From Sediminibacillus dalangtanensis (GTDB taxonomy: Bacteria > Bacillota > Bacilli > Bacillales > Amphibacillaceae), in the NCBI RefSeq assembly GCF_017792025.1, contig NZ_CP046956.1, positions 1,054,001 through 1,118,000 on the forward strand: a stretch of DNA of 64,000 nt, in the 5' to 3' direction. The first letter of the stretch is position 1; the number at the start of each line of letters is the position of its first letter. Positions 505 to 62,910 of this stretch are shown here, piece after piece. Under the pieces are notes generated by a model that was not told the origin of the DNA, searched no databases, and saw only the letters and a list, made by a program, of their open reading frames with translations. Both the position numbers and the translations under genes were made by a program.

Positions 505-748
505 GCTGTAAAGGAAATTATAAAATTAATTGACTGTGGATAATTATTGGCTGAACCAGCCACGTCCAGCTCCAGCGCCTACCCCCTCGAGGTCTTAAGC
601 CCACCCTCTGTGTGGCAAAAAGCGCCGCGCCGAGGCTGTTCTTAAGCTTGTCGGAGGCCCAAACGATGTGGGTCATGCAGGCGTTGCCACAGGACGTGAC
701 AGCTTTAGCCTGTACTCCTTTAAACAGGCGCTTGCGCTTTTGTCCCTA
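505..748 (+). repeat. Modular dispersed repeat, copy 1 (leader + module A + module B + tail)
   Basis: Longest of four related copies in this window (others at 14861, 48796 and 62823). It has a leader (GCTGTAAAGGAAATTATAAA type), module A (contains TACCCCCTCGAGGTCTTAAG), module B (contains GGGTCATGCAGGCGTTGCC) and a tail (GGCGCTTGCGCTTTTGTCC). It starts exactly behind a terminator T tract. The open frame that begins at 668 lies in this repeat and is not counted as a gene. The remaining gap to 848 shows no gene. Confidence 0.85.
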
Positions 749-848
749 TCGAACAGTAGCATAGAGAGGAATGTTTTTTTTGATCTAAGTACAGCGCATC
801 CAACAGTCTCTACATACATAAGATTAACCCTCTTGAAACCACTGGAGG

Positions 849-1478
849 TTAGACTTTCTCTGGATTTAAGCCTCTCCAGAAAAAATCAACGATTTGTTCG
901 GCGGTTTGCGTTGTTGTCGGAAAAATGCCATTTCCGTTCCGATTTCGATAGTTGCCAACCCGCAGCAATGCTACGTAGGCATGGGCAGCAAATGTGGAAT
1001 CAATACTGCTTGTTTCTTTCTTTTCTCCTGCTTCTCTAATCGCTTGTTCAATAGCTTTATATAATTGTTCCTCAGCATGCTGCATTCTGGTTATCTGTTC
1101 TTCTGACAAATTATTTTTTGTTTCGCGCATGAAACTGTCTAAGTCTATATTGAATGTGGCAGTCAAGTGTGCTTCGGCAATTTCCAGCAGGCGTTCGCGT
1201 AACGGAATATCTTTTTGTAAAATCCCTTGGGTTTGTCCATGAATCCGGGTAATTAGTTGTACGATGGTTTCTGTAAACAAGGAAGCCTTGCTTGGATAGT
1301 AATAATATATGGTAGCTTTGGTGAGGTTGGCAGCCTTGGCTACGTCGTCCACGGATACTTCCTGGTAACTATGGGCTAAAAAAAGCTCGATGGCTGCCTG
1401 GAGGATGATGTCGGTTGTCGGTTGTTTTCGGTCACTTGCGCGCGGTCTTCCCAGCGGCCGTTGGTTATTCGCGGTCAA
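849..1478 (-). CDS. TetR/AcrR family transcriptional repressor
   Basis: A 209-residue protein starting at TTG (1478-1476), preceded by AAGGAGAG at good spacing. The N-terminal helix-turn-helix covers about residues 24-68, with the family pattern VDDVAKAANLTKATIYYYY and then PSKASLF. The C-terminal helical domain that binds effector and dimerises is not conserved enough to name a ligand. It is divergent from the MMPL exporter at 1620, and the 140-bp shared region holds a consensus sigma-A promoter with an ACC-N4-GGT palindrome in its spacer. The likely role is local repression of the exporter, and perhaps of itself. TetR family membership is clear; the target is inferred from gene arrangement. 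Confidence 0.92.
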   Translation of the reverse strand: MTANNQRPLGRPRASDRKQPTTDIILQAAIELFLAHSYQEVSVDDVAKAANLTKATIYYYYPSKASLFTETIVQLITRIHGQTQGILQKDIPLRERLLEIAEAHLTATFNIDLDSFMRETKNNLSEEQITRMQHAEEQLYKAIEQAIREAGEKKETSSIDSTFAAHAYVALLRVGNYRNRNGNGIFPTTTQTAEQIVDFFWRGLNPEKV

Positions 1479-1551
1479 TCTCGCTCTCTCCTTATTTCCT
1501 TCTATTTCTGCAAGTATATCATACGTTTTTAATAAAGATATTTCCTGTAAA

Positions 1552-1580
1552 TTGAAAATTAACCAACCGGTATATATAAT
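1552..1580 (+). promoter_or_regulatory. Sigma-A promoter of the MMPL exporter
   Basis: TTGAAA at 1552-1557 and TATAAT at 1575-1580 with an exact 17-bp spacer, 40 bases before the start codon. Confidence 0.8.
1562..1571. promoter_or_regulatory. Candidate TetR operator in the promoter spacer
   Basis: ACCAACCGGT fits ACC-N4-GGT, the pattern seen three times in front of the other TetR gene of this window (60304-60395). It lies between the -35 and -10 boxes, a position where a bound repressor would block RNA polymerase. Assignment to the divergent TetR protein is inference. Confidence 0.45.
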
Positions 1581-1619
1581 TAATATCAGTACTTACTTTC
1601 AATCGGAGAAGGGGATGGC

Positions 1620-3857
1620 ATGAACAATTTTACAGAATGGTTAGGCAAAGCGATAGCAGGTATGAGAACCAGATGGTTAACCGTGGTGATATGGGTTGCC
1701 CTTGTGGCAGTAGTATCGATGGTGTGGCCTCAGGTGAATAAAGAAGAAACAGGATCGAATAATCTGTTACCGGGAGATGCAATGTCGGAAGAGGCTGCCA
1801 GGCTTGCTGATGAACAGTTTCCGGATAATTCGGGTGTTCCGTTACTTGTGGTATGGTACAGAGATGGCGGATTGACAGAAGAAGATTTTTTATCTGTACA
1901 ATCATTGTTCGGCAAGTTGGAAGAAAACCCGCTCGAAAATCAAAAAATGATTCCAGGATTTGGAGAAATGCCTGTGCCGGTATTGCAAGAGGCAGCCTCA
2001 GAAGATGAAATGGCACTAACGACTCCGATATTTTTTAGCGAGGAAGCTGTCACAGATGAACTGCAAGCAGCGATGGTCAGTTTGCAGCAGCGCATAAATG
2101 AGATTTCGGAGGAGCAGGTCTTTGAAAAAGACCTCGAATCTGAAGGGCTTCACGTAAGATTTACCGGCCCGGCAGGCATTCAGACGGATACCACTGCTTT
2201 GTTCAGCCAGGCGGATGTGACCTTGTTGATTGCGACTGTCTTATTGGTATTGGTATTGCTGATTGTTTTATACCGTTCTCCTATATTAGCGGTTGTTCCG
2301 CTGATAGGTGTAGGTTTTGCGTATGGTTTGGTCAGCCCGTTGCTAGGTTTCTTTGCCAGTCAGGGCTGGATTGTCGTCGATGCACAGGCAGTATCGATCA
2401 TGACTGTCCTGTTATTTGGGGCTGGAACAGATTATTGTTTGTTCCTTGTTTCCCGTTACCGGGATGAACTGCAATTGGAGGCGAATAAATATAAGGCACT
2501 GCAGCTGGCGATTGCCAATTCCGGTGGGGCCATTATGATGAGTGCACTTACCACGGCGATTGGTTTGTTGACTTTATCGCTGGCGCAGTATGCTTCTTAC
2601 GATCGATTTGCTGTTCCCTTCAGTCTTGCGATTGTTATTATGTGTATTGCTGTGCTAACCTTGCTTCCGGCAATTTTGGCCATTTTCGGTAGAACGGCTT
2701 TCTTCCCATTCATACCAAGAACAGAAAAGATGGCGAAAGAATTAACAGAGAAAAAAGGAAAACCAGTTCGGCAACCAAAAACGAGAAGCAAGTTCAGTAA
2801 AGCGGCAGGTCGACTGGTTACGGAGAAGCCATGGGCAATTATTATTGTCTGCCTTCTTTTCTTGGGCGGACTGGCAGCATTCGTACCAAAAATCGATTAC
2901 ACGTATGGCGTGCTGGATTCTTTTCCAGATGATATGCCGTCCCGGGAAGGTTTTGCTGTAATTGCTGAACACTATCCTCCCGGAGAAATTGCTCCAGTCG
3001 ATATGATCGTCGAGACAGATAGCGGGATAGATGAAATGCAATCGGCTATCGCTGGAATGGACAATGTTGCGAGGGTAAGTGATCCGAGATTTGGGGAGAA
3101 CAATGAGGATTTTGTTCATTACTCCGTCACGCTATCTATCGACCCTTATTCTTCTGAAGCTGTAGCCATGGTTCCGGATTTAAAGGATCGTGCAGAGGAT
3201 GTACTGGAACAGGAGGGCATGGAAAATGCTGATGACCATGTATGGATTGGCGGAGAAACAGCAATTCTTTTTGACACCGAACAAATAACCAGCCGTGACC
3301 AAAATATCATTATTCCGGTCATCCTTGTTATCATCGCTATTTTGCTGCTGGTATATTTACGTTCGATTGTTGCAATGACTTATTTACTGTTGACGGTTGT
3401 TTTGTCTTTCTTTTCCGCATTGGGGCTGGGTTGGCTGTTTATCCATTACGGAATGGATGAGCCGGCGATGCAAGGGCTGATCCCGTTATACGCCTTTGTA
3501 TTTCTTGTAGCACTAGGCGGTGATTACAATATTTTTATGATATCGAGTATTTGGAGAAACCGGAAACGGATGCCGTTAAAACAGGCAATTGCAGAAGGGG
3601 TAGGGGAAACCAGCAGTGTCATTACTTCCGCAGGCCTTATTTTGGCAGGAACATTTTCTGTTTTAGCTGTCATGCCGATGCAGGTGCTTGTTCAGTTTGG
3701 TGTCGTCACCGCCATCGGTGTGTTACTCGATACCTTTATCGTCAGACCGTTGCTCGTCCCCGCCATTACCACCGTGCTGGGAAAATATGCGTTCTGGCCA
3801 GGGGCTTTGTGGAAAAAAACGGATGCTCAACTCCAGAAAAAAAGAAGTTCATGGTAA
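1620..3857 (+). CDS. MMPL/RND-family exporter (YdfJ-like)
   Basis: A 745-residue membrane protein, the usual size for Gram-positive MMPL proteins such as B. subtilis YdfJ. The topology is the duplicated MMPL plan: TM1 near 18-36, an extracytoplasmic loop to about 195, a five-helix bundle at about 200-360, then TM7 near 403-425, a second loop, and a bundle from about 558 to 730. Conserved polar motifs GTDYCLFLVSRYRDEL and GGDYNIFMISSIWRNRKR, at equivalent places in the two halves, carry the aspartates expected to relay protons. The start ATG follows GGAGAAGGGG. It is monocistronic with its own terminator and divergent from a TetR repressor, which suggests inducible export of a lipid or drug. 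The substrate is unknown. Confidence 0.92.
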   Translation: MNNFTEWLGKAIAGMRTRWLTVVIWVALVAVVSMVWPQVNKEETGSNNLLPGDAMSEEAARLADEQFPDNSGVPLLVVWYRDGGLTEEDFLSVQSLFGKLEENPLENQKMIPGFGEMPVPVLQEAASEDEMALTTPIFFSEEAVTDELQAAMVSLQQRINEISEEQVFEKDLESEGLHVRFTGPAGIQTDTTALFSQADVTLLIATVLLVLVLLIVLYRSPILAVVPLIGVGFAYGLVSPLLGFFASQGWIVVDAQAVSIMTVLLFGAGTDYCLFLVSRYRDELQLEANKYKALQLAIANSGGAIMMSALTTAIGLLTLSLAQYASYDRFAVPFSLAIVIMCIAVLTLLPAILAIFGRTAFFPFIPRTEKMAKELTEKKGKPVRQPKTRSKFSKAAGRLVTEKPWAIIIVCLLFLGGLAAFVPKIDYTYGVLDSFPDDMPSREGFAVIAEHYPPGEIAPVDMIVETDSGIDEMQSAIAGMDNVARVSDPRFGENNEDFVHYSVTLSIDPYSSEAVAMVPDLKDRAEDVLEQEGMENADDHVWIGGETAILFDTEQITSRDQNIIIPVILVIIAILLLVYLRSIVAMTYLLLTVVLSFFSALGLGWLFIHYGMDEPAMQGLIPLYAFVFLVALGGDYNIFMISSIWRNRKRMPLKQAIAEGVGETSSVITSAGLILAGTFSVLAVMPMQVLVQFGVVTAIGVLLDTFIVRPLLVPAITTVLGKYAFWPGALWKKTDAQLQKKRSSW

Positions 3858-3860
3858 AAA

Positions 3861-3893
3861 GAGTACCGCCAGCCAAACTGGCGGTACTTCTTT
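3861..3893 (+). terminator. Terminator of the MMPL gene
   Basis: An 11-bp perfect stem (3862-3872 with 3878-3888) with a 5-nt loop follows the stop codon by 4 bases. The T tract is short and interrupted (TTCTTT). Confidence 0.75.
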
Positions 3894-4184
3894 GCATGGA
3901 AGGTAAGAAAGTATGAGTTCTGATGTGATGTTGTCAGGACCTTTCCGTGGTCTTAAGCCAATCCCTGTACAGCAGAAGGAATCCACTCAGAGGTTTCTCT
4001 CAAGCTGATTGGTGGTGAGTAGAGAGATTCCTCGTTTAAAATTGTAGAGAAGTGGAGGGGTTTGCGGAAATGATGGCCAGCCTCATGTATTGAATTAATC
4101 AGATTTATTTGTAACGATAGATAACATTTTTTAATGATTGTTTGATAACAATGGCGTATATTAGGTACAAGAGGTGAAGGGGAA
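3894..4184. other. Intergenic region with a degenerate inverted repeat
   Basis: No gene seen. An imperfect palindrome spans about 3982-4038 (GAATCCACTCA on the left, TGAGTAGAGAGATTC on the right). The AT-rich stretch at 4100-4165 probably holds the promoter of the methyltransferase gene, but no clean -35/-10 pair could be picked. Confidence 0.4.
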
Positions 4185-4796
4185 ATGGGAAAATGGTTTC
4201 CAACAGTCTATGATTTTTTCATGAAACCTTTGGAGAAACATAGGTTTAAGGATATTCGAAGCAATCTTATAGCAAAAGCAAAAGGAAGAGTTCTAGAGAT
4301 TGGTTCCGGCTCAGGAATCAATTTACCACACTATCAGCACTGTGTTGAACAAGTGACGGCTATAGATCCCAATGAACAGATGTTGCAGCGTTCTGCTAAA
4401 TTTGTGCGGCAGGGAAAAGTGCAAGTCCAACTTATAAAGGCAGAGGCGGAGAAACTTCCCTTCGCAGACAATACATTTGATACGGTAGTAGCAACGCTGG
4501 TATTTTGTACGGTTGCGGATCCACAAAAAGCCATTTTAGAAATAAAAAGAGTCAGCAAACCCGGAGCAAGGATACTCTTATTCGAGCATGTTAAAGTACA
4601 TCATCCGTTTTGGGCGAAGATCCAAGATATACTAACACCGGCTTGGAAAAAAGTATGTGACGGCTGCCATTTAAACCGGAACACACTTGATTATATAAAA
4701 CAAGCGGATTTATCTGTCCTTGAATTTAAAAATTACTACAAAGGAATATTTATAACGGTAGATTGTTCATACCAGCCAGAAGTGAATAAGAAATAG
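4185..4796 (+). CDS. Class I SAM-dependent methyltransferase
   Basis: A 203-residue protein with the Rossmann-type methyltransferase fold. The SAM-binding glycine motif VLEIGSGSGINLPHY lies near residues 34-48, the acidic post-beta2 segment is TAIDPNEQM, and a motif II-like stretch is AEKLPFADNTFDTV. The C-terminal DGCHLNRNT pattern resembles METTL7/UbiE-type and phospholipid N-methyltransferases, so a small lipid or quinone-like acceptor is possible, but the substrate cannot be read from sequence. The start ATG has GAGGTGAAGGGG just upstream. It stands alone and converges on the copper-storage gene, sharing a bidirectional terminator. Confidence 0.88.
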   Translation: MGKWFPTVYDFFMKPLEKHRFKDIRSNLIAKAKGRVLEIGSGSGINLPHYQHCVEQVTAIDPNEQMLQRSAKFVRQGKVQVQLIKAEAEKLPFADNTFDTVVATLVFCTVADPQKAILEIKRVSKPGARILLFEHVKVHHPFWAKIQDILTPAWKKVCDGCHLNRNTLDYIKQADLSVLEFKNYYKGIFITVDCSYQPEVNKK

Positions 4797-4879
4797 GTGT
4801 CACCCAGCCTAAATGATTCAAACACAAGCAAATTAGTGAAGTGAAGTTGTTTAGAAGGGCTAATATGTTTATATAGTAG

Positions 4880-4915
4880 AAAAAAGTCTCCGGAATAATT
4901 CCGGAGACTTTTTTA
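4880..4915. terminator. Bidirectional terminator between methyltransferase and copper-storage gene
   Basis: AAAAAGTCTCCGG pairs perfectly with CCGGAGACTTTTT around a 7-nt loop. The A and T runs flank it on both sides, so it can serve both convergent genes. Confidence 0.9.
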
Positions 4916-4931
4916 GGAGTTCCTTACTAAA

Positions 4932-5258
4932 TTAAGCAACTTTACGGCAAGCATCTGCACACTTCATGCAGATATCCGCACATTTCTGGCAATGTTCTTG
5001 TTCGTGCTTTTTACATTCATTTCCACAGTCTTCGCAAATTTTTGCACATACAGAAGCAAGTTCCGCTACATATGGTGTACCACGCGTAATTGCTTGAGCC
5101 AGGTAACCGCAAATATCCGCGCATTCACGATCAAGGCGAATGCATGGTGCCATCATTTTCACGTCGTCTTCCTCTAGACAGGCATCATAACAGTGGTTGC
5201 ACTGTACCATACAGTCATGTAAAGTGTTGAGAAGCTCTTGATATTTTTCGTGTGCCAT
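4932..5258 (-). CDS. yhjQ: Four-helix-bundle copper-storage protein (Csp3/YhjQ family)
   Basis: A 108-residue soluble protein with 16 cysteines at 16, 20, 23, 27, 39, 46, 50, 71, 75, 78, 82, 90, 93, 97, 100 and 104, mostly in CxxxC and CxxC spacing along predicted helices. This matches cytosolic copper-storage proteins of the Csp3 type (B. subtilis YhjQ has the same length, and I recall the same CIRLDRECADIC core). In this family four-helix bundles form a tetramer whose cores are lined with Cys thiolates that bind many Cu(I) ions. There is no signal peptide, so it is cytosolic. The start ATG is preceded by GGAGGGA. No copper exporter or chaperone gene lies next to it. Confidence 0.9.
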   Translation of the reverse strand: MAHEKYQELLNTLHDCMVQCNHCYDACLEEDDVKMMAPCIRLDRECADICGYLAQAITRGTPYVAELASVCAKICEDCGNECKKHEQEHCQKCADICMKCADACRKVA

Positions 5259-5441
5259 TTTATCGTCCCTCCATTAAGTATATTACATATAATCATCTTC
5301 CCCGTTTGAAGCCAGATTAAACCGATAGTTATCTGACAAGGAATATGCGAGGGAATCTGATGCTTAAACCCTCGCAATGGATAACGAATGAACTTGGTGG
5401 ACAAGTACACAATAATGCCATAGGTCATTATGCATAGGAGA

Positions 5442-5482
5442 AACATTACCTTTGTCTTATTGACTGCGACAAAGGTAATGTT
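5442..5482. promoter_or_regulatory. 15-bp perfect inverted repeat upstream of the mtl promoter (candidate MtlR site)
   Basis: Arms 5442-5456 and 5468-5482 are perfectly complementary around 11 bases and contain TTTGTC-N11-GACAAA. It ends 8 bases before the -35 box of the mtl promoter, a usual place for an activator, and has no T tract. B. subtilis MtlR sites also contain TTG/CAA-type half-sites, but the spacing differs, so the assignment is inference. Confidence 0.5.
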
Positions 5483-5490
5483 AGTGTTTC

Positions 5491-5519
5491 TTGAATGGCG
5501 TTTACATGTGACTTATGAT
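5491..5519 (+). promoter_or_regulatory. Sigma-A promoter of the mannitol operon
   Basis: TTGAAT (5491-5496), 17-bp spacer, TATGAT (5514-5519), 44 bases before the mtlA start. The spacer contains GGCGTTTACA, which matches one half of a CcpA cre box, so catabolite control is possible but the site is degenerate. Confidence 0.65.
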
Positions 5520-5563
5520 GATAACGTCTGATATTATCTTATTTTATTGAAAGGAAGTATAAT

Positions 5564-7501: not shown

Positions 7502-7515
7502 GTGCAGCATAGAGG

Positions 7516-7547
7516 AGAAAGGCGGGGGTATTCCTGCCTTTCTGTTC
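7516..7547 (+). terminator. Weak terminator/attenuator between mtlA and mtlR
   Basis: AGAAAGGCGGG (7516-7526) pairs with TCCTGCCTTTCT up to 7543, with one G-U, followed by a poor T tract. It could lower mtlR-mtlD expression relative to mtlA. Confidence 0.55.
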
Positions 7548-11048: not shown

Positions 11049-11175
11049 CGCTGCGGAAATATCCTGCGCTTTCCGCGGGCGGCTGGTGAGCTTCCTCGAG
11101 CTAACGCTCTGCAGGATCTCACCGAGGCCTTTCCTCCCGCAGGAGTCTCCGGGTATTTCCTTCGCTTGGACCAGC
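11049..11175 (+). repeat. GC-rich dispersed repeat (family 2), forward arm
   Basis: Begins CGCTGCGGAAAT, continues GCGCTTTCCGCGGGCGGC, and ends near CCCGCAGGAGTCTC and TTTCCTTCGCT. A close copy lies at 41084-41198. An inverted degenerate copy follows at 11396-11505, so the two form a large palindromic pair. The whole 10955-11730 interval has no credible gene; open frames at 11030-11236 and 11256-11575 lie in these repeats. Confidence 0.8.
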
Positions 11176-14860: not shown

Positions 14861-14960
14861 TGTATAGGAAATGATAAATTTAACTGTCTGTGGGTCATGC
14901 AGGCGTTGCCACAGGACGTGGCGGCCCTAGCCTGTACTCCTTTAAACAGGTCTTGCGCTT
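14861..14960 (+). repeat. Modular dispersed repeat, copy lacking module A
   Basis: The leader TGTATAGGAAATGATAAATT runs to CTGTCTGTGG and then jumps straight to module B (GGGTCATGCAGGCGTTGCC) and a shortened tail. Compared with copy 1 the whole segment between two TGTGG sequences is missing. It sits directly behind the hemAT terminator. Confidence 0.8.
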
Positions 14961-15288
14961 ATTCTTTAGGTTGTTGGATTTGAAAGTGATAGCGCTAAGC
15001 ATTAGCGCGTGTTATCCATCTACGAAAAAACACCCGCTTTCCGCAGGAAGCTGGAGGGGGGGATTTCAGTAATTCCTTTTTTTTTTACGCTGAATTCTTT
15101 CTTTATGTTCCCTCTGCTGACCTCAGGTATCCTCTTATTCAACCAAGACATGTTTTCTCATCGTTTTTTGCATACCTTCATCTCTGGGAGACAAGGTTAT
15201 GTAAAATATTACACCTGTTTCTGTATATAAGTTCTACCTCTTTCATCTCCTTATATACTCTCAATGAGAATAAAAAAGGAGTGAGGAA
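14961..15288. other. Intergenic region with a family-2 repeat remnant
   Basis: CACCCGCTTTCCGCAGGAAG at 15031-15050 is a fragment of the GC-rich repeat. The rest is AT-rich. The lipase promoter should lie at about 15190-15260, but no consensus pair stands out. Confidence 0.4.
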
Positions 15289-25428: not shown

Positions 25429-25600
25429 TGTATCATTCGTTATTGCAGCTTGCTATCTACTATTCTACTAAATTGTGTATAATTATGTAAATATTCTACG
25501 GAACCGGCTTAGGGGCATTTTCTATAAAGGGGGTACTCTACGTTGGTTGAAGGGTGCAGCGTCTAGCTATTCCAAAACGATAATGAAGAGAAAATAAAGA
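25429..25600. other. Upstream region of the channel gene
   Basis: AT-rich region expected to contain the leftward promoter. No gene seen. Confidence 0.35.
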
Positions 25601-25675
25601 GCCTGGGACAAAAGCATGGCCACCAAAGCAAAAACCGAGTGAATTCTAAATGCCAGTCAAATTTGTTCGGTTTTT
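25601..25675 (+). repeat. Terminator-type repeat (family 3), copy 1
   Basis: CCTGGGACAAAAGCAT, then CACCAAAGCAAAAACCGA, then a hairpin whose arms are AAAACCGA (25631-25638) and TCGGTTTT (25667-25674). An inverted copy lies at 26145-26213, so 25601-26213 is a ~610-bp segment with inverted repeats at its ends. The interior (25676-26144) contains a family-2 repeat and no credible gene. Confidence 0.75.
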
Positions 25676-26091: not shown

Positions 26092-26144
26092 AGTGGAAAG
26101 TGGCACCTTTTTATAAGGGGGAACGTTTTGCTTTTTGCTCATCA

Positions 26145-26213
26145 AAAAAACCGAACGAATGGTGGATTCGTTCGGTTTTCATTTTGGTCAAGATGCTTTT
26201 GTCCCAGGATCTT
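26145..26213 (-). repeat. Terminator-type repeat (family 3), inverted copy; terminator of the ArsP-type permease
   Basis: On the minus strand it reads CCTGGGACAAAAGCATCTTG, ACCAAAATGAAAACCGAACG, then a perfect 14-bp hairpin (26147-26160 with 26166-26179) followed by seven Ts. It begins 8 bases after the permease stop codon and is a complete intrinsic terminator. Confidence 0.85.
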
Positions 26214-26220
26214 TTTATTC

Positions 26221-41083: not shown

Positions 41084-41198
41084 ATGCTGCGGAAATACCC
41101 TGCGCTTTCCGTGGGCGGCTCGAGCTTGCGCTCTCCGGGATCTCACCGAGGCCTCTCCTCCCGCAGGAGTCTCCGGGTGTTTCCTTCGCTAGAACAGC
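41084..41198 (+). repeat. GC-rich dispersed repeat (family 2), second forward copy
   Basis: Close to 11049-11175: it shares GCTGCGGAAATA, CCTGCGCTTTCCG, GGGCGGCT, TCTCACCGAGGCC and CCCGCAGGAGTCTCCGGGT. An inverted partner follows at 41290-41395. The interval 40975-41506 has no gene; open frames over the repeats are discounted. Confidence 0.85.
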
Positions 41199-41944: not shown

Positions 41945-42080
41945 TCGTGGAGCTGTTCATCCCTTGAGTGAGCGGCATCTTGATTTTGTAAATTTCTAAT
42001 CGAGTAATTTAAACAGAAAGGGTAAAGACAAATTTTATATGAATCTGTTGCTGATTAGATTGGTGGAAAAGGGATAAATA

Positions 42081-42330
42081 GAAGTTCATTCAAGGTATGA
42101 AGTTCGAATTATAGTGGAGGCAAGCGAGAAAAGAAGTTCATTCGAGGTATGAAGTTCGAATTATAGTGGAGGCAAGCGAGAAAAGAAGTTCATTCAAGGT
42201 ATGAAGTTCGAATTATAGTGAAGGCAAGCGAGAAAAGAAGTTCATCCAAGGCATGAAGTTCGAATGGGAGTGGAGGTAGGTGCAAAAAGATGTTCATCGG
42301 GCTCGGGAAGATCAAGTTTGGCTTTAGTTT
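42081..42330 (+). repeat. 52-bp tandem repeat, four copies plus a degenerate fifth
   Basis: Units begin at 42081, 42133, 42185 and 42237, exactly 52 bases apart, each starting GAAGTTCAT and containing GGTATGAAGTTCGAATTATA (changed in the fourth) and GGAGGCAAGCGAGAAAA. A fifth, decayed unit begins at 42289. Copies 1-3 differ at only a few bases. The period is not a multiple of three and no frame crosses it, so it is non-coding. Nothing else is seen in 41945-42420. Confidence 0.9.
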
Positions 42331-42576
42331 TGAAAAACCTAAAGAGATTTCGTAATTTTTATAATTGACTATTCTGCCAATTCAAGCGAAAAAAATGGTA
42401 TGATGTAAAACAAGATATTCTACGGTGGGGAGGATGATTGTTAATGTTCATAGGAGGAAATGGCTCTGTCCTCCGCTTGTTTTCCTATGGGCAGGAAAGA
42501 AGAGTTCGAACGGGCAAGTGAGTATGGAGGACCGAATCAGGATAAGTCAAATATAGCAAAGTCGGGAGGAATCCGG

Positions 42577-48795: not shown

Positions 48796-48978
48796 GCTGT
48801 ATAGGAAATTATAAATTTAATTGTCTGTGGATAATTATTGGCTGAACCAGCCACGTCCAGCTCCAGCGCCTACCCCCTCGAGGTCTTAAGCCCACCCTCT
48901 ATGTGGCAAAAAGCGCCACGCCGAGGCTGTTCTTAAGCTTGTCGGGGGTGAGCAAGGCGCTTGCGCTTTTGTCCTAGC
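48796..48978 (+). repeat. Modular dispersed repeat, copy lacking module B
   Basis: Leader GCTGTATAGGAAATTATAAA, module A with TACCCCCTCGAGGTCTTAAG, then directly the tail GGCGCTTGCGCTTTTGTCC. Very similar to copy 1 (505) over leader and module A. Nothing else is seen up to 49127. Confidence 0.88.
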
Positions 48979-54955: not shown

Positions 54956-54962
54956 TGATCCT

Positions 54963-55925: not shown

Positions 55926-55945
55926 AAGATAAAGAGGTGATACAC

Positions 55946-56845
55946 ATGGCTGAATTACAGGCTGGCGCCACTGGTAGGCAGGAAAAAAGCCCTTCCGCAT
56001 TAAAAATTATGTGGAGAGAATTGGCCAGGGACAAGGTCGCATTGATATCTTTCATTTTCTTGCTGATGGTAACAGTTTTTGTATATGGCATCTCCTTGTT
56101 TTTGAATCAGGATGAAATCGTGGCAGTCGACTTGTTTGAAATTCATCAGCCTCCAACCGGAGAATTTTGGCTGGGCACTGATTATGGTGGCAGGGATGTG
56201 TTTGGCCAATTGATTATCGGTACGCGCAATTCTCTGTCTATCGGTATTCTGGTCACCTTGATGACCGGTATCATCGGCGTACTATATGGGTTGATTTCCG
56301 GTTACTTTGGCGGAACGGTTGATAACATCATGATGCGGATTGTTGACTTCTTTCTTATCCTCCCCTTTTTGATGATTGTCATTGTATTTTTGGCCATTGT
56401 TCCAAAATATGATATTTTTTCGTTTTCTTTGATTATGACGTCCTTTTTGTGGATGGGGATTGCCAGGTTGATCCGATCCAAAGCTTTGCAGGAACGGGAG
56501 TTGGATTATGCACAGGCATCCAAATCGCTGGGAACTCCGGAATGGAAAATCATGTTTTCGCAGGTCCTGCCAAATTTAAGTTCTTTGATTATCGTTACCA
56601 TGACGTTGAATTTAGCTGCGAATATTGGTTTGGAGTCCGGGCTGTCTTTTTTAGGATTCGGATTTCCGGAAAGCACGCCAAGTCTTGGCACTTTGCTTGG
56701 TTATGCAAGGAACCCGCAAACCTTGGAGTTCAGATGGTGGATTTGGGTTCCTGCAGCAGTGTTGATTTTTGTTCTAATGTTAAGCGTACGCAATGTCGGA
56801 GAAGCACTGAAGCGTGCTTCCGACTCAAGGCAGAGGAGAGGATGA
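55946..56845 (+). CDS. Peptide ABC transporter permease (OppC/AppC type)
   Basis: A 299-residue permease with N-terminal OppC domain (LARDKVALISFIFLLMVTVF), the sequence HQPPTGEFWLGTDYGGRDVF characteristic of OppC/DppC, and the EAA loop QASKSLGTPEWKIMFSQVLP. The ATG at 55946 follows AGAGGTGA; a GTG at 55937 lies inside that site. It overlaps the small ORF that follows (ATGA). Confidence 0.95.
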   Translation: MAELQAGATGRQEKSPSALKIMWRELARDKVALISFIFLLMVTVFVYGISLFLNQDEIVAVDLFEIHQPPTGEFWLGTDYGGRDVFGQLIIGTRNSLSIGILVTLMTGIIGVLYGLISGYFGGTVDNIMMRIVDFFLILPFLMIVIVFLAIVPKYDIFSFSLIMTSFLWMGIARLIRSKALQERELDYAQASKSLGTPEWKIMFSQVLPNLSSLIIVTMTLNLAANIGLESGLSFLGFGFPESTPSLGTLLGYARNPQTLEFRWWIWVPAAVLIFVLMLSVRNVGEALKRASDSRQRRG

Positions 56846-56934
56846 AGGACGTTCAATTGATACTCACATCAATAATCTTGTTATTGATGATGTGTATAGA
56901 TAGTCAGTTCACTAGTGCTGACACACCATTTTAA
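56842..56934 (+). CDS. Possible 30-residue hydrophobic peptide inside the Opp operon
   Basis: The ATG (56842) overlaps the stop of the C-type permease gene as ATGA and is preceded by GAGGAGAG. The frame encodes a short N terminus, a hydrophobic core (LILTSIILLLMMCI) and DSQFTSADTPF, then TAA 14 bases before the binding-protein ATG. It could be a secreted or membrane peptide, a coupling ORF that keeps ribosomes on the message, or chance. Not recognised. Confidence 0.45.
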   Translation: MKDVQLILTSIILLLMMCIDSQFTSADTPF

Positions 56935-56948
56935 GGGGAGGAAATTAG

Positions 56949-58775
56949 ATGAGAAAAAAACATTATGGCAAGCTGTTGTTCTTGTTGATGCTGGCCTTTC
57001 TGTTCTTCGTTTTGGCGGCGTGCAGTGACGAGGATGCAGGAGCGGAAGTCGAAGGAAAAGACGATGCGGAGAAGGGTGAGTCTGCACAGGACGAGGTTTT
57101 CTCGATTGATGATTTTGAACAAATCAAGACCAATCAAGGAGAGGCAATCGAAGGTGGAACGCTTAACTTCGGCTTGGTTTCCGATACCGCTTTTGAAGGT
57201 ACATTGAACTTTAATTTTTACTCCGGAAATCCAGACGCACAGGTGATTAGCTGGTTCGATGAATCGTTGTTGGACGTAGATGAAAATTATGCCTATACGA
57301 ATGATGGAGCTGCAACGCTTGATGTAGACCGGGAAGCAAAGACAATCACATTCAAAATCCGTGATAATGTCAACTGGCATGATGGCGAGCCTGTGACAGC
57401 TGAAGACTGGCAGTTTGCCTATGAGGTGATAGGCCACCCGGACTACGACGGAATTCGTTATGGATCGGATTTTACGATTATCAAAGGCATGGAAGCCTAC
57501 CATAATGGAAAAGCAGATACGATATCCGGAATTGAGGTCATCGATGAGAAAACGATGAAAATAACGTATGACACCTTTACCCCGTCGCTTTTGTCGAGCG
57601 GAATTTGGTCCTATGCGATGCCAAAACATATCTTTAAAGATATTCCGGTTGCAGACATGTCTTCCTCCCCGGAAGTACGTGAACACCCAATCGGGATGGG
57701 GCCGTTTAAAGTAGATTCTATTGTACCCGGTGAATCCGTGACGTTCGTGAAAAACGAAGATTACTGGCGGGGAGAACCGAATCTCGACGGGGTTACGCTA
57801 AAAGTAATCAACCCGAATGTAGTCGTGCAGGCACTGGAAAATGGAGAAGTGGATTTGGTGGATAGTTTTCCAACCGATCAATATCCGGAAAATGCGGATA
57901 TGTCCAACGTAGAGTTTGTCGGTGACGTGGATCTTGCTTATACGTATATCGGATTTAAATTAGGGAAGTGGGATGCAGACGCCGGTGAGGTGGTCCCAGA
58001 TCCGGACGCAAAAATGGCAGACGTTGATCTTAGAAGAGCCATGTGGCATGCCGTAGACAATGATGCGGTCGGCAAGAAGTTTTACAATGGTCTTCGCTGG
58101 AACGCCAGTACACTCATTCCGCCTTCCCATCCTGACTACCATGATGATAGTATCGAAGCACCAACTTACGATCCTGACAAGGCGAATCAGCTTTTGGATG
58201 ATGCTGGCTATGAAGATGTCAATGGTGATGGTATCCGCGAGGACAAAGATGGCAATGAACTTGTGATCAATTTTGCTTCGATGTCAGGCGGTGACACTGC
58301 AGAACCGTTGGCTCAATACTATATCCAGGCGTGGGAAGCAGTAGGTTTGAAAGTTGAGTTGCTTGATGGACGCTTACAGGAATTCAATACTTTCTATGAC
58401 CGTGTGGAAGCGGATGATCCGGAAATCGACATTTATCAGGGTGCATGGTCTGTAGGGTATGATGTCAATCCGGCTGGTTTATACGGAAGGGATGCCGCTT
58501 TTAATTACACCCGTTATGCAAGTGAAGAAAACGACGCATTGCTGCAGGAAGGTGTATCGGAAAAAGCATTCGACGAGGCATATCGTCAGGATGTCTACAG
58601 TAAATGGCAGGAGCTGATGGTGGAAGAAATTCCAGTATTCCCGACCGTTTACCGGGCAGTGATCATTCCGGTGAACAACCGGGTGCAAAACTATGCTGTC
58701 GACTTCAAAGAAGGTGTCGGCATCTATCGTTACCAACTAGCGGTAACCCAGGAAGAGGCAGTAACTGCTGAATAA
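56949..58775 (+). CDS. Peptide ABC transporter substrate-binding lipoprotein (SBP family 5)
   Basis: A 608-residue lipoprotein: signal peptide, lipobox LAAC (Cys25), an acidic linker, then the family 5 binding-protein fold. Typical segments are NVNWHDGEPVTAEDWQFAYE and VRFDRRAMWHAVDN-like DLRRAMWHAVDN near residue 360. Loop YDVNPAGLYGRDAAFNYTRY is near the ligand site. The ATG follows GGGGAGGAAAT. Last gene of the D-F-B-C-A operon; a peptide ligand is likely but unproven. Confidence 0.94.
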   Translation: MRKKHYGKLLFLLMLAFLFFVLAACSDEDAGAEVEGKDDAEKGESAQDEVFSIDDFEQIKTNQGEAIEGGTLNFGLVSDTAFEGTLNFNFYSGNPDAQVISWFDESLLDVDENYAYTNDGAATLDVDREAKTITFKIRDNVNWHDGEPVTAEDWQFAYEVIGHPDYDGIRYGSDFTIIKGMEAYHNGKADTISGIEVIDEKTMKITYDTFTPSLLSSGIWSYAMPKHIFKDIPVADMSSSPEVREHPIGMGPFKVDSIVPGESVTFVKNEDYWRGEPNLDGVTLKVINPNVVVQALENGEVDLVDSFPTDQYPENADMSNVEFVGDVDLAYTYIGFKLGKWDADAGEVVPDPDAKMADVDLRRAMWHAVDNDAVGKKFYNGLRWNASTLIPPSHPDYHDDSIEAPTYDPDKANQLLDDAGYEDVNGDGIREDKDGNELVINFASMSGGDTAEPLAQYYIQAWEAVGLKVELLDGRLQEFNTFYDRVEADDPEIDIYQGAWSVGYDVNPAGLYGRDAAFNYTRYASEENDALLQEGVSEKAFDEAYRQDVYSKWQELMVEEIPVFPTVYRAVIIPVNNRVQNYAVDFKEGVGIYRYQLAVTQEEAVTAE

Positions 58776-58792
58776 TTCATGAAGCTAGAAGT

Positions 58793-58870
58793 GCTGGGAT
58801 AAAAGAACAGTGACCAAAGCAAAAACCGAACGAATTCGAAGTTTTATTTCGAATCATCGTTCGGTTTTTC
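58793..58870 (+). repeat. Terminator-type repeat (family 3), copy after the Opp operon
   Basis: Conserved lead CTGGGATAAAAGAACAGTGA and CCAAAGCAAAAACCGAACGA, then a hairpin ending CGTTCGGTTTTTC. The arms contain AAAACCGAACGA/ATTCGA and the complementary right side. It serves as the intrinsic terminator of the Opp operon. Same family as 25601 and 26145. Confidence 0.82.
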
Positions 58871-58980
58871 TAGTAGCATGAAAAATGAGGAGATTGTCGA
58901 CGAAGTTAAATGGATTAGGATATAGTATATGTAACGAAGGTGAAGACAAATTTTAAAGCGAATCCAAAAGGAGGGAGCCC

Positions 58981-59553
58981 ATGCTTCATAATGAGGAAAA
59001 ACTGTTGCTGGAAGGCAAGGACATTTATTTGCGCCCGTTCGAAAAGGGTGATGCTGCTCAAACACTTCAGCTGCAAAAAAGGAACAAGGAATTTTTTGAA
59101 CGGTTTTCGATGACTCGAAGTGAAGCTTATTATACCTTGTCTACTCAACAGAAGTTAATGGAATCGTTTCGTGCGAAAAGAGAGGCAGATGAAGCGTATC
59201 ACTTTGGAATCTACCAAAAGAGTGACCACCAGCTGGTAGGGAACATTCAGTTGTTACAGGTTGTGCGCGGTTCTTTGCAAAGTTCATTTATCGGTTATTT
59301 CGTTGATGAGAGCCACAATGGAAAAGGGTATGCCTCCGAAGCAGTAAAGCAAATAACTTCCTATGCATTTAATGGATTAAAATTACACCGAATTGAAGCC
59401 GGGGTCATGCCGCACAACAAAGGATCAATACGGGTGTTGGAGAAGGCGGGTTTTCACCGGGAAGGAATAGCCAGAAAAAATGTGTTCATTAACGGGAAAT
59501 GGGAAGATCATCAAGTATTGGCTCTTCTTAACCCCGCTGATTCGGTTTCCTGA
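58981..59553 (+). CDS. GNAT acetyltransferase, RimJ/RimL type
   Basis: A 190-residue N-acetyltransferase. N-terminal LLEGKDIYLRPFEKGDAAQT is typical, the acetyl-CoA loop is ESHNGKGYASEAVKQI, and the family ending LHRIEAGVMPHNKGSIRVLE continues into KAGFHREG. RimJ-type enzymes acetylate protein N termini or small amines; the target is not known. The ATG follows AAGGAGGGAG. It is 17 bases before the HAD gene, probably one transcript. Confidence 0.92.
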   Translation: MLHNEEKLLLEGKDIYLRPFEKGDAAQTLQLQKRNKEFFERFSMTRSEAYYTLSTQQKLMESFRAKREADEAYHFGIYQKSDHQLVGNIQLLQVVRGSLQSSFIGYFVDESHNGKGYASEAVKQITSYAFNGLKLHRIEAGVMPHNKGSIRVLEKAGFHREGIARKNVFINGKWEDHQVLALLNPADSVS

Positions 59554-59570
59554 CATGGAGGAGGTGCAAT

Positions 59571-60227
59571 ATGATACAGGCTGTTCTGTTTGATCTGGAT
59601 GGCACCATGCTGGATCGTGAAAGGAGCATCCGGTTATTCATCCAAGGTCAGTATGACCGGATGGAGAACTATTTAAGAGATGTGGATAAAACAGATTTTA
59701 TCGAAGCTTTTTTGAAATTAGACGCCGGCGGATATGTTTGGAAAGACAGGGTGTATCAGCAGCTGGTCAGTAAATTTTCAATTCGCTCTGTTTCCTGGCA
59801 GGAATTGCTGGATGATTACATAAGCCAATTTAGACACAGTTGTATCCCTTTTCCCAACCTTAAAGTAGTCCTGGAAACCTTGAGATACAAGCGGTTAAAG
59901 TTAGGAGTCATCACAAACGGCCGTTATCCTTTTCAACTGGATGCAATCAAGGCGCTCGGTATCGAACGATATTTTGATTTGCTGTTAATTTCTGAAAAAG
60001 AAGGAATCGGGAAACCGGATCCAGCTATTTTTCATAGAGCTTCAAAGCAGCTGAACGTTCCGCTGGATAAATGTTTATTTGTCGGTGACCATCCGGAAAA
60101 GGATATGGAAGCGGCAGGAAAAGCAGGGATGGTTACTGTTTGGAAGAAAACGACAGGCTATAAAGCGGAAAAAGCGGACTATACCATTCGCCGTTTAGAA
60201 GAATTACTTGAGTTAGAAGTTGTTTAA
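59571..60227 (+). CDS. HAD-superfamily hydrolase (phosphatase-like)
   Basis: A 218-residue protein. Motif I FDLDGTMLD has nucleophile Asp8 and Asp10, motif II is GVITNGR, motif III is the Lys in GIGKPDPAIF, and motif IV is VGDHPEKDMEAAGKAG. A cap domain lies between about 15 and 85. It is a small-molecule phosphatase of the YjjG/Gph type; the substrate is unknown. The ATG follows GGAGGAGGTG. Confidence 0.92.
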   Translation: MIQAVLFDLDGTMLDRERSIRLFIQGQYDRMENYLRDVDKTDFIEAFLKLDAGGYVWKDRVYQQLVSKFSIRSVSWQELLDDYISQFRHSCIPFPNLKVVLETLRYKRLKLGVITNGRYPFQLDAIKALGIERYFDLLLISEKEGIGKPDPAIFHRASKQLNVPLDKCLFVGDHPEKDMEAAGKAGMVTVWKKTTGYKAEKADYTIRRLEELLELEVV

Positions 60228-60250
60228 CGATGGCAACCATGGAAAAGAGG

Positions 60251-60293
60251 TAGGAACAGGAGAAGAGATGCTCTCCCCTTGTTCCTATTTTTT
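60251..60293 (+). terminator. Terminator of the GNAT-HAD operon
   Basis: TAGGAACAGGAGAAGAG and CTCTCCCCTTGTTCCTA form a long stem with two mismatches around ATG, followed by Ts. Confidence 0.85.
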
Positions 60294-60303
60294 ATCTCAA
60301 TAG

Positions 60304-60395
60304 ACCAATTGGTTTTGTTGACAAAAAGCGTGATGTATCATAAGATAATCCTCATGATTAAATGACCAGTTGGTACTAAAAAGTAACCGCTTGGT
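60304..60395. promoter_or_regulatory. Three ACC-N4-GGT operator-like palindromes
   Basis: ACCAATTGGT at 60304-60313, ACCAGTTGGT at 60365-60374 and ACCGCTTGGT at 60386-60395. The first touches the -35 region, the other two follow the -10 box, and the last two centres are 21 bp apart (two turns). They resemble the AGACC-type boxes of the lmrAB/TetR regulon in B. subtilis. Probably bound by the TetR protein encoded next. Confidence 0.65.
60318..60346 (+). promoter_or_regulatory. Promoter of the TetR-DHA2 operon
   Basis: TTGACA (60318-60323), 17-bp spacer, TAAGAT (60341-60346), flanked by the operator-like palindromes. Confidence 0.75.
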
Positions 60396-60410
60396 TTTGG
60401 GGGGAGACAG

Positions 60411-61298
60411 ATCAGTAAAAAGCAGGTTTTAAAAGAAGCGGCAATTCGACTATTCGCGGAAAAAGGCTACCATATGACCTCCATACAGGAAATCGCTCTA
60501 GAGACGGGGGTTTCCAAGGGAGCTTTTTACAAACATTTTGCCAGTAAAGAAGCGTTACTAATTGAATTGGTTAAGGACTGCCACAATAAAATGTTTCTAA
60601 AAGCCCATTCTGTTCAAGTTGACGGGGCATTGACCGGAAAGGAATTACTACAAAAGCGAATAGAAATTGAGCTCGAACAAACTCGGAAAAACAGTTCGAT
60701 TCTCTTTACCTTGTTCAAAGAATTCCCTCCTGGAGAGTCGAATGAAATTTCTCAAATGATGAAAGAGTTCCATATGAAATTAATTCAGTGGCATAAACAA
60801 TGTCTAATCGAGGCATTTGGAGACAGCGATGCGATCTGGGATATCGTCGTGATGTTCGAGGGGATATTGAAAGAGTATATATCGCTGCTGGTATTCAAGC
60901 AGACCCAAGTACCAGTGGGCCGATTGGCTCATTTACTGACAGATGTTTTAGAATCTATGATTAATCGAGCAAAAAATCTGGAACCTATTCTCAACGAAGA
61001 GACGGTGTTACCGGACAAACAGAATGATAATCCTGCCATCCTGAAACAACAGCTGCATAAACTAATGGAGTCTGTCAGACAAGAGGCTGAAACACTTCTA
61101 GTACCGGACAAAATGAAGAACGATACATTAGCGGCTCTGAATCATCTTTCAGAGGAAATACAAAAAGACAAACCGCAGATATACTTGCTTGATGCATTAA
61201 TTGATTATTTAAAACAGCAGGATTGTTTAGTAAGCAGTATTCTGCAAATCGAGCACACACTAAACAGATTATTGAGGGAAGAAGGAGAAGATAGATAA
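60411..61298 (+). CDS. TetR-family regulator (start codon uncertain, possibly ATC)
   Basis: About 295 residues, longer than most TetR proteins because of a C-terminal helical extension. The HTH reads KQVLKEAAIRLFAEKGYHMT, then SIQEIALETGVSKGAFYKHF. The first in-frame ATG (60474) would delete helix 1 of this domain. In frame upstream there is no ATG, GTG or TTG; an ATC at 60411, four bases after GGGGGAG, fits the expected protein start (ISKKQVLKEA). Either a rare ATC start is used, or a recent mutation damaged the start. It shares one base (TAATG) with the exporter gene, as in lmrA-lmrB. Confidence 0.8.
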   Translation: MSKKQVLKEAAIRLFAEKGYHMTSIQEIALETGVSKGAFYKHFASKEALLIELVKDCHNKMFLKAHSVQVDGALTGKELLQKRIEIELEQTRKNSSILFTLFKEFPPGESNEISQMMKEFHMKLIQWHKQCLIEAFGDSDAIWDIVVMFEGILKEYISLLVFKQTQVPVGRLAHLLTDVLESMINRAKNLEPILNEETVLPDKQNDNPAILKQQLHKLMESVRQEAETLLVPDKMKNDTLAALNHLSEEIQKDKPQIYLLDALIDYLKQQDCLVSSILQIEHTLNRLLREEGEDR

Positions 61299-62773
61299 TG
61301 GCAGAAGAAAACCAACAAACAAGCCAGCCTGATATAAAAATCGGTCCGATGCTAGCCGTCATGTTAATCGGTGCATTCGTCGGTTTATTGAATGAAACTT
61401 TGCTGGCAACCGCATTGCCATCCATCATGGCTGATTTTGGTATTACAGAAAATAAAGTGCAATGGCTGACCACAGCTTTTCTACTGACGAACGGGGTGAT
61501 GATCCCGATTTCCGCTTTTTTAATTGAACGATTTACGACAAGGAAGTTGTTCATGACTGCTTTCAGTATTTTTGGGTTAGGTACATTGATCAGTTCACTG
61601 TCCCACGTATTTCCTTTACTACTAACGGGCCGGGTTATCCAGGCTGCAGGATCGGGAATCATGCTCCCGTTGATGATGACCGTCATTTTAACCGTGATCC
61701 CGAGAGAAAGGCGTGGTGCGGTTATGGGAATGGCGGGAATCGTCATCTCGTTTGCCCCGGCAATCGGACCGACGCTGTCCGGATGGCTATTAGAATACTT
61801 TTCATGGAGGGCGCTGTTCTATATTGTGCTGCCCATCGTGATTTTGACCATTGTGTTTGCTTACTTTTCAATGAGGAATGTCACTAGATTAACCAAGCCC
61901 AAGATCGATATTTTGTCGATTATCATGTCATCATTCGGTTTCGGCGGATTGTTGTATGGATTCAGCAGCGCTGGGGAAGATGGCTGGAGCAGCTCCAAAG
62001 TACTTGTTTGCTTGATCGGCGGTGCTATTATCCTGGCATTATTCATATGGCGCCAGCTAAAACTGGCTACACCGCTGTTGCAATTCAAAGTATTTAAATT
62101 CAACATTTTCAGCCTATCCCTAATCATAACCATGATCGTATTGATGTCGATGATCGGTGCAGAAACATTGCTGCCGCTATACATGCAGAATTTACGTGGT
62201 TTTACACCACTTGAGTCCGGCCTGATGTTGCTACCGGGTGCGATTGTAATGGGAATCATGTCGCCGATTACAGGGATGATGTTCGATAAGTTTGGAGCGC
62301 GCTGGCTAGCGGTGCCTGGTTTGGCTATAGTTGCAGTCACAACCTATATATTCACGAACTTGTCGATGGACACCTCGTTTACCATGCTTGCTATTGTGTA
62401 TGCTGTTCGTATGTTCGGTTTGGCGTTAGCCATGATGCCGGTTATGACAGCCGGACTAAACCAAATTCCAGATGAATGGAATGCCCACGGTTCAGCCATG
62501 GCGAACACAATGCAACAGGTGTCCGCATCGATTGGCACAGCTATCCTTATCACCGTGATGACAACTGCTGCCAAAAACTATCAGCCGGATATGTCTTCAC
62601 TGGCAGGACTATCCCAGGCGGATGCGAAGCAGCAGGTAGCCAATAGTGCGCTGTTGCATGGCTATAATAGCGCCTTTTTGTTTGCTTCCATCCTTGCTTT
62701 GGCCGGGATGCTGCTCGCACTGTTTTTAAATACGAAAAAAACTGACGAGAAAACGACGACAGTAGAAGAATAG
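61298..62773 (+). CDS. DHA2-family multidrug exporter (LmrB/EmrB-like)
   Basis: A 491-residue protein with 14 membrane segments. The TM4-5 region holds LTGRVIQAAGSGIMLPLMMT (DHA2 motif B with Arg) and the motif C-like GIVISFAPAIGPTLSGWLLE; the early motif is NETLLATALPSIMADFGI. A drug/proton antiporter of the inner membrane. It overlaps the TetR stop by one base, so the operon is regulator-exporter. The C-terminal third is similar to the truncated exporter at the start of the window. Confidence 0.93.
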   Translation: MAEENQQTSQPDIKIGPMLAVMLIGAFVGLLNETLLATALPSIMADFGITENKVQWLTTAFLLTNGVMIPISAFLIERFTTRKLFMTAFSIFGLGTLISSLSHVFPLLLTGRVIQAAGSGIMLPLMMTVILTVIPRERRGAVMGMAGIVISFAPAIGPTLSGWLLEYFSWRALFYIVLPIVILTIVFAYFSMRNVTRLTKPKIDILSIIMSSFGFGGLLYGFSSAGEDGWSSSKVLVCLIGGAIILALFIWRQLKLATPLLQFKVFKFNIFSLSLIITMIVLMSMIGAETLLPLYMQNLRGFTPLESGLMLLPGAIVMGIMSPITGMMFDKFGARWLAVPGLAIVAVTTYIFTNLSMDTSFTMLAIVYAVRMFGLALAMMPVMTAGLNQIPDEWNAHGSAMANTMQQVSASIGTAILITVMTTAAKNYQPDMSSLAGLSQADAKQQVANSALLHGYNSAFLFASILALAGMLLALFLNTKKTDEKTTTVEE

Positions 62774-62779
62774 CAGTAG

Positions 62780-62818
62780 CGGCATACTTCTGGTAATCCA
62801 GAGGTATGCCGTTTTTTT
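62780..62818 (+). terminator. Terminator of the TetR-DHA2 operon
   Basis: CGGCATACTTCTGG pairs with CCAGAGGTATGCCG (one G-U) around TAAT, followed by seven Ts. Confidence 0.93.
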
Positions 62819-62822
62819 AAAA

Positions 62823-62910
62823 GATAAGAAAGTATAAATTTCAGAGATGTCTAGCTCCAGCACCTACCCCCTCGAGGTCTTAAGTCCACCCTCTGTGTGG
62901 CAAAAAGCTT
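62823..62910 (+). repeat. Modular dispersed repeat, truncated copy (leader + part of module A)
   Basis: A degenerate leader (GATAAGAAAGTATAAATTTC), then CTAGCTCCAGCACCTACCCC, CTCGAGGTCTTAAGTCC and TGTGTGGCAAAAAGCTT, after which similarity to copy 1 ends. Directly behind a terminator T tract, like the other three copies. Confidence 0.8.

What the first reader, a model, noticed from the sequence alone, without database searches (positions are those of the whole stretch)
505..62910. A dispersed repeat family sits directly behind the U-tract of intrinsic terminators, four times out of four
Copies at 505, 14861, 48796 and 62823 all begin 0-5 bases after the T run of a Rho-independent terminator (MFS gene, hemAT, LysR gene, TetR-DHA2 operon), always in the same orientation as the terminated gene. 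The terminator sequences themselves differ, so the hairpin is not part of the repeat. This is the target choice known for class C group II introns and a few transposons, and it suggests a small non-autonomous element that recognises terminator hairpins. Position and orientation are seen directly; mobility is inference.
Basis: partly seen in the sequence, partly recalled or inferred. Interest (0 to 1): 0.72.

Follow-up and report, generated by a model that had tools for sequence, protein, structure and literature searches.

The report
Small repeats inserted behind transcription terminators
A short, gene-less DNA element has copied itself about a hundred times around this bacterial chromosome, almost always landing right behind the hairpin that ends a gene's transcription and facing the way the replication fork moves, which points to a jumping element that recognises hairpins in single-stranded DNA.

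Summary
The host genome has about 95 copies of a 239-nt (short form 177-nt) element with leader YTGTATAGGAAATKATAAATTTAA, plus about 20 with a second leader. 84 of 90 type I leaders directly follow a terminator hairpin and T-tract (29 of 270 shuffled sequences, 108 of 1500 random positions). At two of the six misses a group II intron separates terminator and repeat. In a same-genus genome 28 of 30 matched sites lack the element, and 22 of those 28 keep the terminator; clean junctions show insertion without target duplication. So terminator and repeat are separable.

New here: copies follow the replication fork (type I 85 of 88; 26:0 between convergent genes), as expected for insertion into the lagging-strand template. 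The core module sits behind terminators across Bacillaceae (57 of 117 copies at the expected spacing, 44 of 3000 random). The long form contains Rfam "Bacillaceae-1 RNA" in antisense.

Target choice matches bacterial-C group II introns, but by the tests run the element is not an intron, MITE, REP or IS200/IS605 relic. The mobilising enzyme is unknown; I favour a structure-guided reverse transcriptase or ssDNA transposase acting at forks.

The parts
472..504 (+). Intrinsic terminator (hairpin + T7) preceding copy 1
   Evidence: sequence; also present without the repeat in genome G004
507..745 (+). Copy 1: type I leader, long form (239 nt)
   Evidence: nhmmer with own-genome model
658..724 (-). 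Bacillaceae-1 RNA (RF01690) module inside copy 1, antisense to the element
   Evidence: Rfam 60.6 bits
14822..14855 (+). Intrinsic terminator preceding copy 2
   Evidence: sequence; terminator kept without the repeat in G001 and G004
14861..14961 (+). Copy 2: type I leader joined to the Bacillaceae-1 module (middle missing)
14887..14946 (-). Bacillaceae-1 RNA module inside copy 2, antisense to the element
   Evidence: Rfam 49.1 bits
48766..48795 (+). Intrinsic terminator preceding copy 3
   Evidence: sequence; conserved at the empty site in G001
48798..48974 (+). Copy 3: type I leader, short form (177 nt)
   Evidence: empty site in G001
62780..62818 (+). Intrinsic terminator preceding copy 4
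   Evidence: sequence; conserved at the empty site in G001
62819..62910 (+). Copy 4: type II leader (AAAAGATAAGAAAGTATAAATTTCAGAGATG), right-truncated
   Evidence: leader by inspection; core by nhmmer

Best explanation
A family of small non-autonomous mobile elements (about 177 or 239 nt; leader YTGTATAGGAAAT..., 3' end GCGCTTTTGTYC) that inserts, without target duplication, a few bases behind a hairpin followed by a T-tract, in the strand that serves as template for lagging-strand synthesis. Shown: copy number, defined ends, pre-existing terminator at empty sites, no target duplication at clean junctions, fork-linked orientation, occurrence behind terminators in many Bacillaceae. Inferred: when the lagging-strand template is single-stranded, the palindrome folds into a hairpin that an enzyme recognises by structure, and the element is copied in behind the hairpin's 3' foot, perhaps from an RNA by a group-IIC-like reverse transcriptase using the nascent lagging strand as primer, perhaps as single-stranded DNA. 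I give structure-guided, fork-coupled insertion about 0.75; of the carriers, an RNA intermediate about 0.4, an ssDNA intermediate about 0.3, something else about 0.3.
For: 84 of 90 type I copies behind a hairpin and T-tract. Of 30 copies whose two flanks were both found in G001, 28 lack the element there and 22 of the 28 keep the hairpin and T-tract (at 891539 a weak model match next to the junction is an older relic shared by both genomes). Five junctions that align to the base (1172144, 1254712, 1547044, 1644575, 1695872) show no duplication if the element starts at the base before TGTAT, apart from one more T in the own tract at 1547044 and 1695872 (read by eye). Type I 85 of 88 co-oriented with the fork outside the terminus zone, oriC placed by dnaA at 3.95 Mb; predicted terminators are only 191:108 leading:lagging (Fisher p 2e-11); between convergent genes 26 leading, 0 lagging. 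A second leader type shares the target (15 of 20). Named Bacillaceae: 57 of 117 core-module copies have a terminator 40-69 nt upstream against 44 of 3000 random positions. Two group II introns of this genome entered copies inside the leader. Four second copies sit right behind the 3' end of a first copy (268183, 803358, 2362229, 2457463).
Against: No mobilising enzyme and no autonomous relative found (fetched loci only). The genome's two RVT_1 hits belong to two introns whose reading frames are broken, so nothing now in the genome is shown to be able to move the element. The core stems show no excess of G-U over A-C cells (1 against 42 in helices P1-P3, 25 of the 42 at one pair; an automatic fold of the same alignment gave 121 against 24, but 93 of the 121 come from one pair that conflicts with P1), and the antisense strand folds slightly better (-56.7 against -54.3 kcal/mol, n=94, p 7e-7; long copies -88.4 against -87.0, n=63, p 0.05): no support for selection on a sense RNA. 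Type II and other copies are less strictly oriented (26 of 32 leading). At some type I sites (for example 2193275, 2670401) the hairpin is weak. At 6 of the 28 empty G001 sites no hairpin was found, the alignment ending 38-200 nt short of the model start. Gene orientation rests on a simple ORF script.
Confidence: 0.6

Rival explanations
1. SINE-like parasite of a group IIC intron reverse transcriptase: the element RNA is reverse transcribed by an intron-encoded RT that binds terminator hairpins, primed by the nascent lagging strand.
For: Same target and same strand preference as reported for bacterial-C introns (PMC8919778, passages); an intron family that mostly sits behind terminators (by eye) is present in this genome, G001 and G003, and 26 of 101 genomes have a DNA match to it, many partial; defined ends and no target duplication.
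Against: Bacillaceae-1 matches occur in 68 of 101 genomes, intron matches in 26; both intron copies here are broken; no sign of sense-RNA selection; no 5'-truncation series was evident, shortened copies mostly keep the leader.
Confidence: 0.3
2. Single-strand DNA transposition by a Y1/HUH transposase in trans (IS200/IS605 or RAYT type).
For: No terminal inverted repeats by inspection, no target duplication; strand bias towards the lagging-strand template; internal hairpins; one open RAYT-like gene at 2919718-2920338.
Against: No fixed short word at the left flank; the RAYT gene is flanked by its own GGGACAGTCCC-type repeats (by eye) and no element hit lies in the stretches of the three Y1 loci; five relatives with 34 or more Bacillaceae-1 matches (G006, G029, G034, G064, G070) have no RAYT match, though Bacillaceae-1 is only a proxy and other Y1 genes were not sought there.
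Confidence: 0.22
3. No targeting: the element inserts anywhere and only copies behind terminators survive, because that is where insertion is harmless.
For: Selection against insertions in genes and promoters must act on any such element (inference, no call).
Against: Spacing from the stem is narrow (5-9 nt in 74 of 84), and at convergent gene pairs, where both orientations should be about equally harmless, the count is 26:0.
Confidence: 0.08
4. Conserved functional 3' UTR module (for example an sRNA or attenuator) inherited with its terminator rather than a mobile element.
For: Bacillaceae-1 is listed in Rfam as an sRNA gene; stems P2 and P3 carry compensatory changes; 2 of 30 sites, neither with a type I leader, hold the element in G001 too (1535350, 2014003).
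Against: 28 of 30 matched G001 sites lack it; the type I leader is found in 2 of 61 genomes.
Confidence: 0.05

Closest known systems
Bacterial-C (IIC) group II introns
   Same: Reported to insert directly behind terminators and preferentially in the lagging-strand template (PMC8919778, passages).
   Different: No group II intron match in the element copies of the window, no RT, 177-239 nt; an intron of this kind is found inserted inside the element as a separate entity.
Bacillaceae-1 RNA (Rfam RF01690)
   Same: 67-nt module of the long form; 94 matches in this genome.
   Different: Lies antisense to the element and is absent from the short form; in other species it also sits in other repeats without a terminator directly before it (by eye).
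IS200/IS605 derivatives and REP/RAYT systems
   Same: No terminal inverted repeats, no target duplication, hairpins, strand preference (family features partly recalled).
   Different: No fixed left target word; the RAYT gene here has other flanking repeats; GTAG/CGTC tagging as in PMC3733652 (passages) was not tested systematically.
IS1272-type inverted-repeat-replacing insertion (PMC5678879, passages)
   Same: Target is recognised as an inverted repeat.
   Different: There the target hairpin is replaced; here it is kept.
bcr repeats of the Bacillus cereus group (PMC6542083, passages)
   Same: Short dispersed repeats of Bacillus with mobile features.
   Different: Reported with TTTAT motif repeats and a recombination-like mechanism; sequences were not compared here.

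Membership tests
Group IIC intron | Catalytic group II RNA core | tested here: not met
   The Rfam scan of the window at gathering scores gives only Bacillaceae-1, while the same library finds the real intron in L195
Group IIC intron | Insertion behind a terminator hairpin | tested here: met
   84 of 90; empty sites
Group IIC intron | Bias to the lagging-strand template | tested here: met
   85 of 88 type I; 26:0 at convergent pairs
MITE (DDE-mobilised) | Terminal inverted repeats | tested here: not met
   Consensus ends YTGTATAGG... and ...GCGCTTTTGTYC are not complementary (inspection)
MITE (DDE-mobilised) | Target site duplication | tested here: not met
   Five junctions aligned to the base, by eye
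IS200/IS605-derived element | Fixed 4-5 nt target at the left flank | tested here: not met
   Left flank is a T-tract with variable last bases
IS200/IS605-derived element | Y1 transposase gene flanked by the same ends | tested here: not met
   Three Y1 loci in the genome; no element hit in their stretches L192-L194
REP/RAYT | RAYT gene flanked by the repeat | tested here: not met
REP/RAYT | GTAG-tagged short palindrome | not tested
   no systematic test run
Bacillaceae-1 RNA | Match over the Rfam gathering score | tested here: met
   long form and the deleted copy 2
bcr repeats | Sequence identity to bcr1-bcr18 | not tested
   consensus sequences were not at hand

The most novel reading that the evidence does not exclude
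A bacterial SINE: a non-coding element spread across Bacillaceae that is copied into the lagging-strand template behind terminator hairpins by a reverse transcriptase working in trans, so that terminators are the genome's landing pads for a whole guild of retroelements (introns and SINE-like passengers), which even nest in one another.
Probability: 0.27. Interest if true: 0.88.

Novelty: new variant of a known kind. Interest (0 to 1): 0.68.

Why it matters
Insertion behind terminators and fork-linked orientation are reported for group IIC introns. Finding both in a tiny repeat without a gene means that structure-guided, fork-coupled insertion is open to elements that carry neither ribozyme nor enzyme. 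It also gives Rfam's unexplained Bacillaceae-1 RNA a context as a module of a mobile element, and it offers a natural collection of about a hundred insertions, many with known empty sites, for working out how hairpins are chosen.

Tried and rejected
Tried without result: an autonomous version with an ORF between leader and 3' end (among 242 leader matches in the fetched loci, 56 had no 3' end within 320 nt; by the look of the list these are truncated or divergent copies, cut-off loci and chance matches, and no candidate was seen); plasmid and phage records with the short form (no match); viral contigs (one contig, L377, read in part: none); exact type I leader pattern in named genomes (none, records near the window's genome may be left out). 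RAYT as partner: disfavoured. Sense-RNA selection: not supported. A first covariation fold on an automatic alignment was poor, so named helices were counted instead; helix P4 there was matched to the wrong partner arm and its counts are ignored. The first terminator baseline scan timed out and was redone with a gap-free stem score. The first coordinate map flipped minus-strand loci wrongly (11326 conflicts) and was rebuilt without flips (0 conflicts). Of 132 nhmmer rows at least two copies are split in two rows (1068861/1068889, 4015393/4015475), so the total is a little lower. One search used 80 of the 120 named stretches; one search used all 120 (137 copies: 117 scored, 9 too near an end, 11 later units of tandem arrays). 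One search scored 17 hand-picked empty sites; one search replaced it with all 30 sites that have both flanks. An early idea that a G004 copy (L145) is orthologous to the window copy at 14861 was dropped: the syntenic G004 site is empty.
Full report
The four copies. In the window the repeat starts right behind a hairpin and T-tract at 507, 14861, 48798 and 62819. Copies 1-3 share one leader (type I, YTGTATAGGAAATKATAAATTTAAYTGTCTGTGG); copy 4 has another (type II, AAAAGATAAGAAAGTATAAATTTCAGAGATG). Copy 1 is the long form, copy 3 the short form, copy 2 has lost its middle and copy 4 its right part.

Genome-wide. The window lies at 1054001-1118000 of a 4.10-Mb single contig. The type I leader has 79 matches with up to 3 mismatches (0 for the reversed control pattern) and 90 with up to 6 in the stretches then fetched. 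Models built from 55 long and 16 short copies have consensus lengths of 239 and 177 nt and give 132 rows of hits, 94 with a type I leader; 20 more have a type II leader and 18 rows neither. The ends are not inverted repeats (inspection), and the long consensus has no stop-free stretch over 79 codons on either strand. The long form carries the Rfam Bacillaceae-1 module in antisense (94 matches genome-wide).

Terminators. 84 of 90 type I copies have a hairpin of dG <= -5 with a T-tract directly upstream; shuffled upstream sequences 29 of 270, random positions 108 of 1500. With a stricter gap-free score 64 of 94 type I and 15 of 20 type II pass, random 50 of 4000. The misses include two copies that are split from their terminator by a group II intron: terminator, then ...TTGTAT or ...TTGAAT, then the intron, then AGGAAAT. 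Rfam matches to group-II-D1D4-4 and Intron_gpII confirm the intron in L195. Related introns in other genomes mostly sit behind hairpins and T-tracts of their own, judged by eye, with L229 and L234 as exceptions and L231 unclear. So intron and element share a landing site, and the intron entered the element.

Empty sites. The same-genus genome G001 shares synteny. For 30 copies both flanks were found on the fetched parts of G001. At 2 of the 30 (1535350, 2014003, neither with a type I leader) G001 holds the element too. At 28 it does not; 22 of these 28 keep a hairpin with T-tract at dG <= -5 by the junction, and at the other 6 the alignment stops 38-200 nt short of the model start and no hairpin was found. 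At 891539 a weak model match beside the junction is an older degenerate relic that both genomes share. At 1172144, 1254712, 1547044, 1644575 and 1695872 both junctions align to the base: no duplication if the element starts at the base before TGTAT, apart from one more T in the own tract at 1547044 and 1695872. The 41 matches that cover at least 146 of 184 bases are 91-100% identical, while flanks to G001 are 81-97% identical, so most of the spread is likely younger than the split. The type I leader is in 2 of 61 genomes (this one 80, G004 4).

Replication. dnaA lies at 3949919, and copy orientation flips there and near the terminus. Outside 1.85-2.06 Mb 85 of 88 type I copies, and 26 of 32 other rows, run with the fork. 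ORFs of 450 nt or more in the same stretches are 218:72 leading:lagging; predicted terminators in the window and 0.4 Mb of relatives are 191:108 (the leading strand of the relatives is taken from synteny). Between convergent genes, where each site could offer one terminator per strand, type I copies are 26 leading, 0 lagging. Ten type I copies with the fork have an oppositely oriented ORF upstream; several of those ORFs look spurious, but at 1119786 the ORF looks like a transporter gene (by eye), and the palindrome in front of it, also present in G001, ends in a T-tract without serving as its terminator. That favours recognition of the DNA hairpin.

Across the family. Of 117 scored copies 78 have a terminator within 160 nt upstream (random 257 of 3000) and 57 at 40-69 nt, about the leader's length (random 44 of 3000). 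Bacillaceae-1 itself is in 68 of 101 genomes but often in other repeats.

Mechanism. No duplication, defined ends, a structure-defined target and fork polarity speak against ordinary DDE elements and fit a single-stranded target. IS200/IS605 is disfavoured by the lack of a fixed left target word, RAYT by its own flanking repeats and by its absence from some repeat-rich relatives. A group-IIC-like RT working in trans fits target and polarity best, but the introns here are broken and the stems show no mark of selection on a sense RNA. I commit to structure-guided, fork-coupled insertion and leave the enzyme open.

Literature. Searches (open-access full texts only; listings seen) returned no title or abstract start that describes this element; passages were read of PMC2864571, PMC8919778, PMC5678879, PMC6542083, PMC2267715 and PMC3733652. 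Supplements were not read.

Noticed in passing
G000 1655217-1657160 and 2584014-2584997 (loci L195, L196): Two copies of one group II intron, both inside type I repeats between TGTAT (or TGAAT) and AGGAAAT; both RT frames are broken, the second copy also has a large deletion.
   Followed up: yes
G000 just upstream of the copy at 2086926 (minus strand): The junction stretch TTTTTCACTGTA occurs three times in a row before the leader, as if the left end had slipped or been copied repeatedly.
   Followed up: no
window 25590-25649, 26130-26220, 58794-58840: Another dispersed family (GGGACAAAAGCAT...AACCGAACGAATTCG) with inverted arms; similar CCGAACGA...TCGTTCGGTTTTT hairpins are the terminators in front of several copies of the element.
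   Followed up: no
window 11050-11171 and 41086-41195: GC-rich mosaic repeat (GCTTTCCGCGGGC ... CTCCCGCAGGAGTCTCC), a further family.
   Followed up: no
window 42025-42336: Tandem array with 52-nt spacing.
   Followed up: no
G000 2919718-2920338 (L193): Single open RAYT-like Y1 transposase gene flanked by GGGACAGTCCC-type repeats.
   Followed up: partly
L377 1-220: A viral contig carries the core module with a type II-like leader behind a GGGGTACC...GGTACCCC hairpin.
   Followed up: partly
G000 891539 and L384: A degenerate older core-module relic lies just downstream of the type II copy and is shared with G001.
   Followed up: partly
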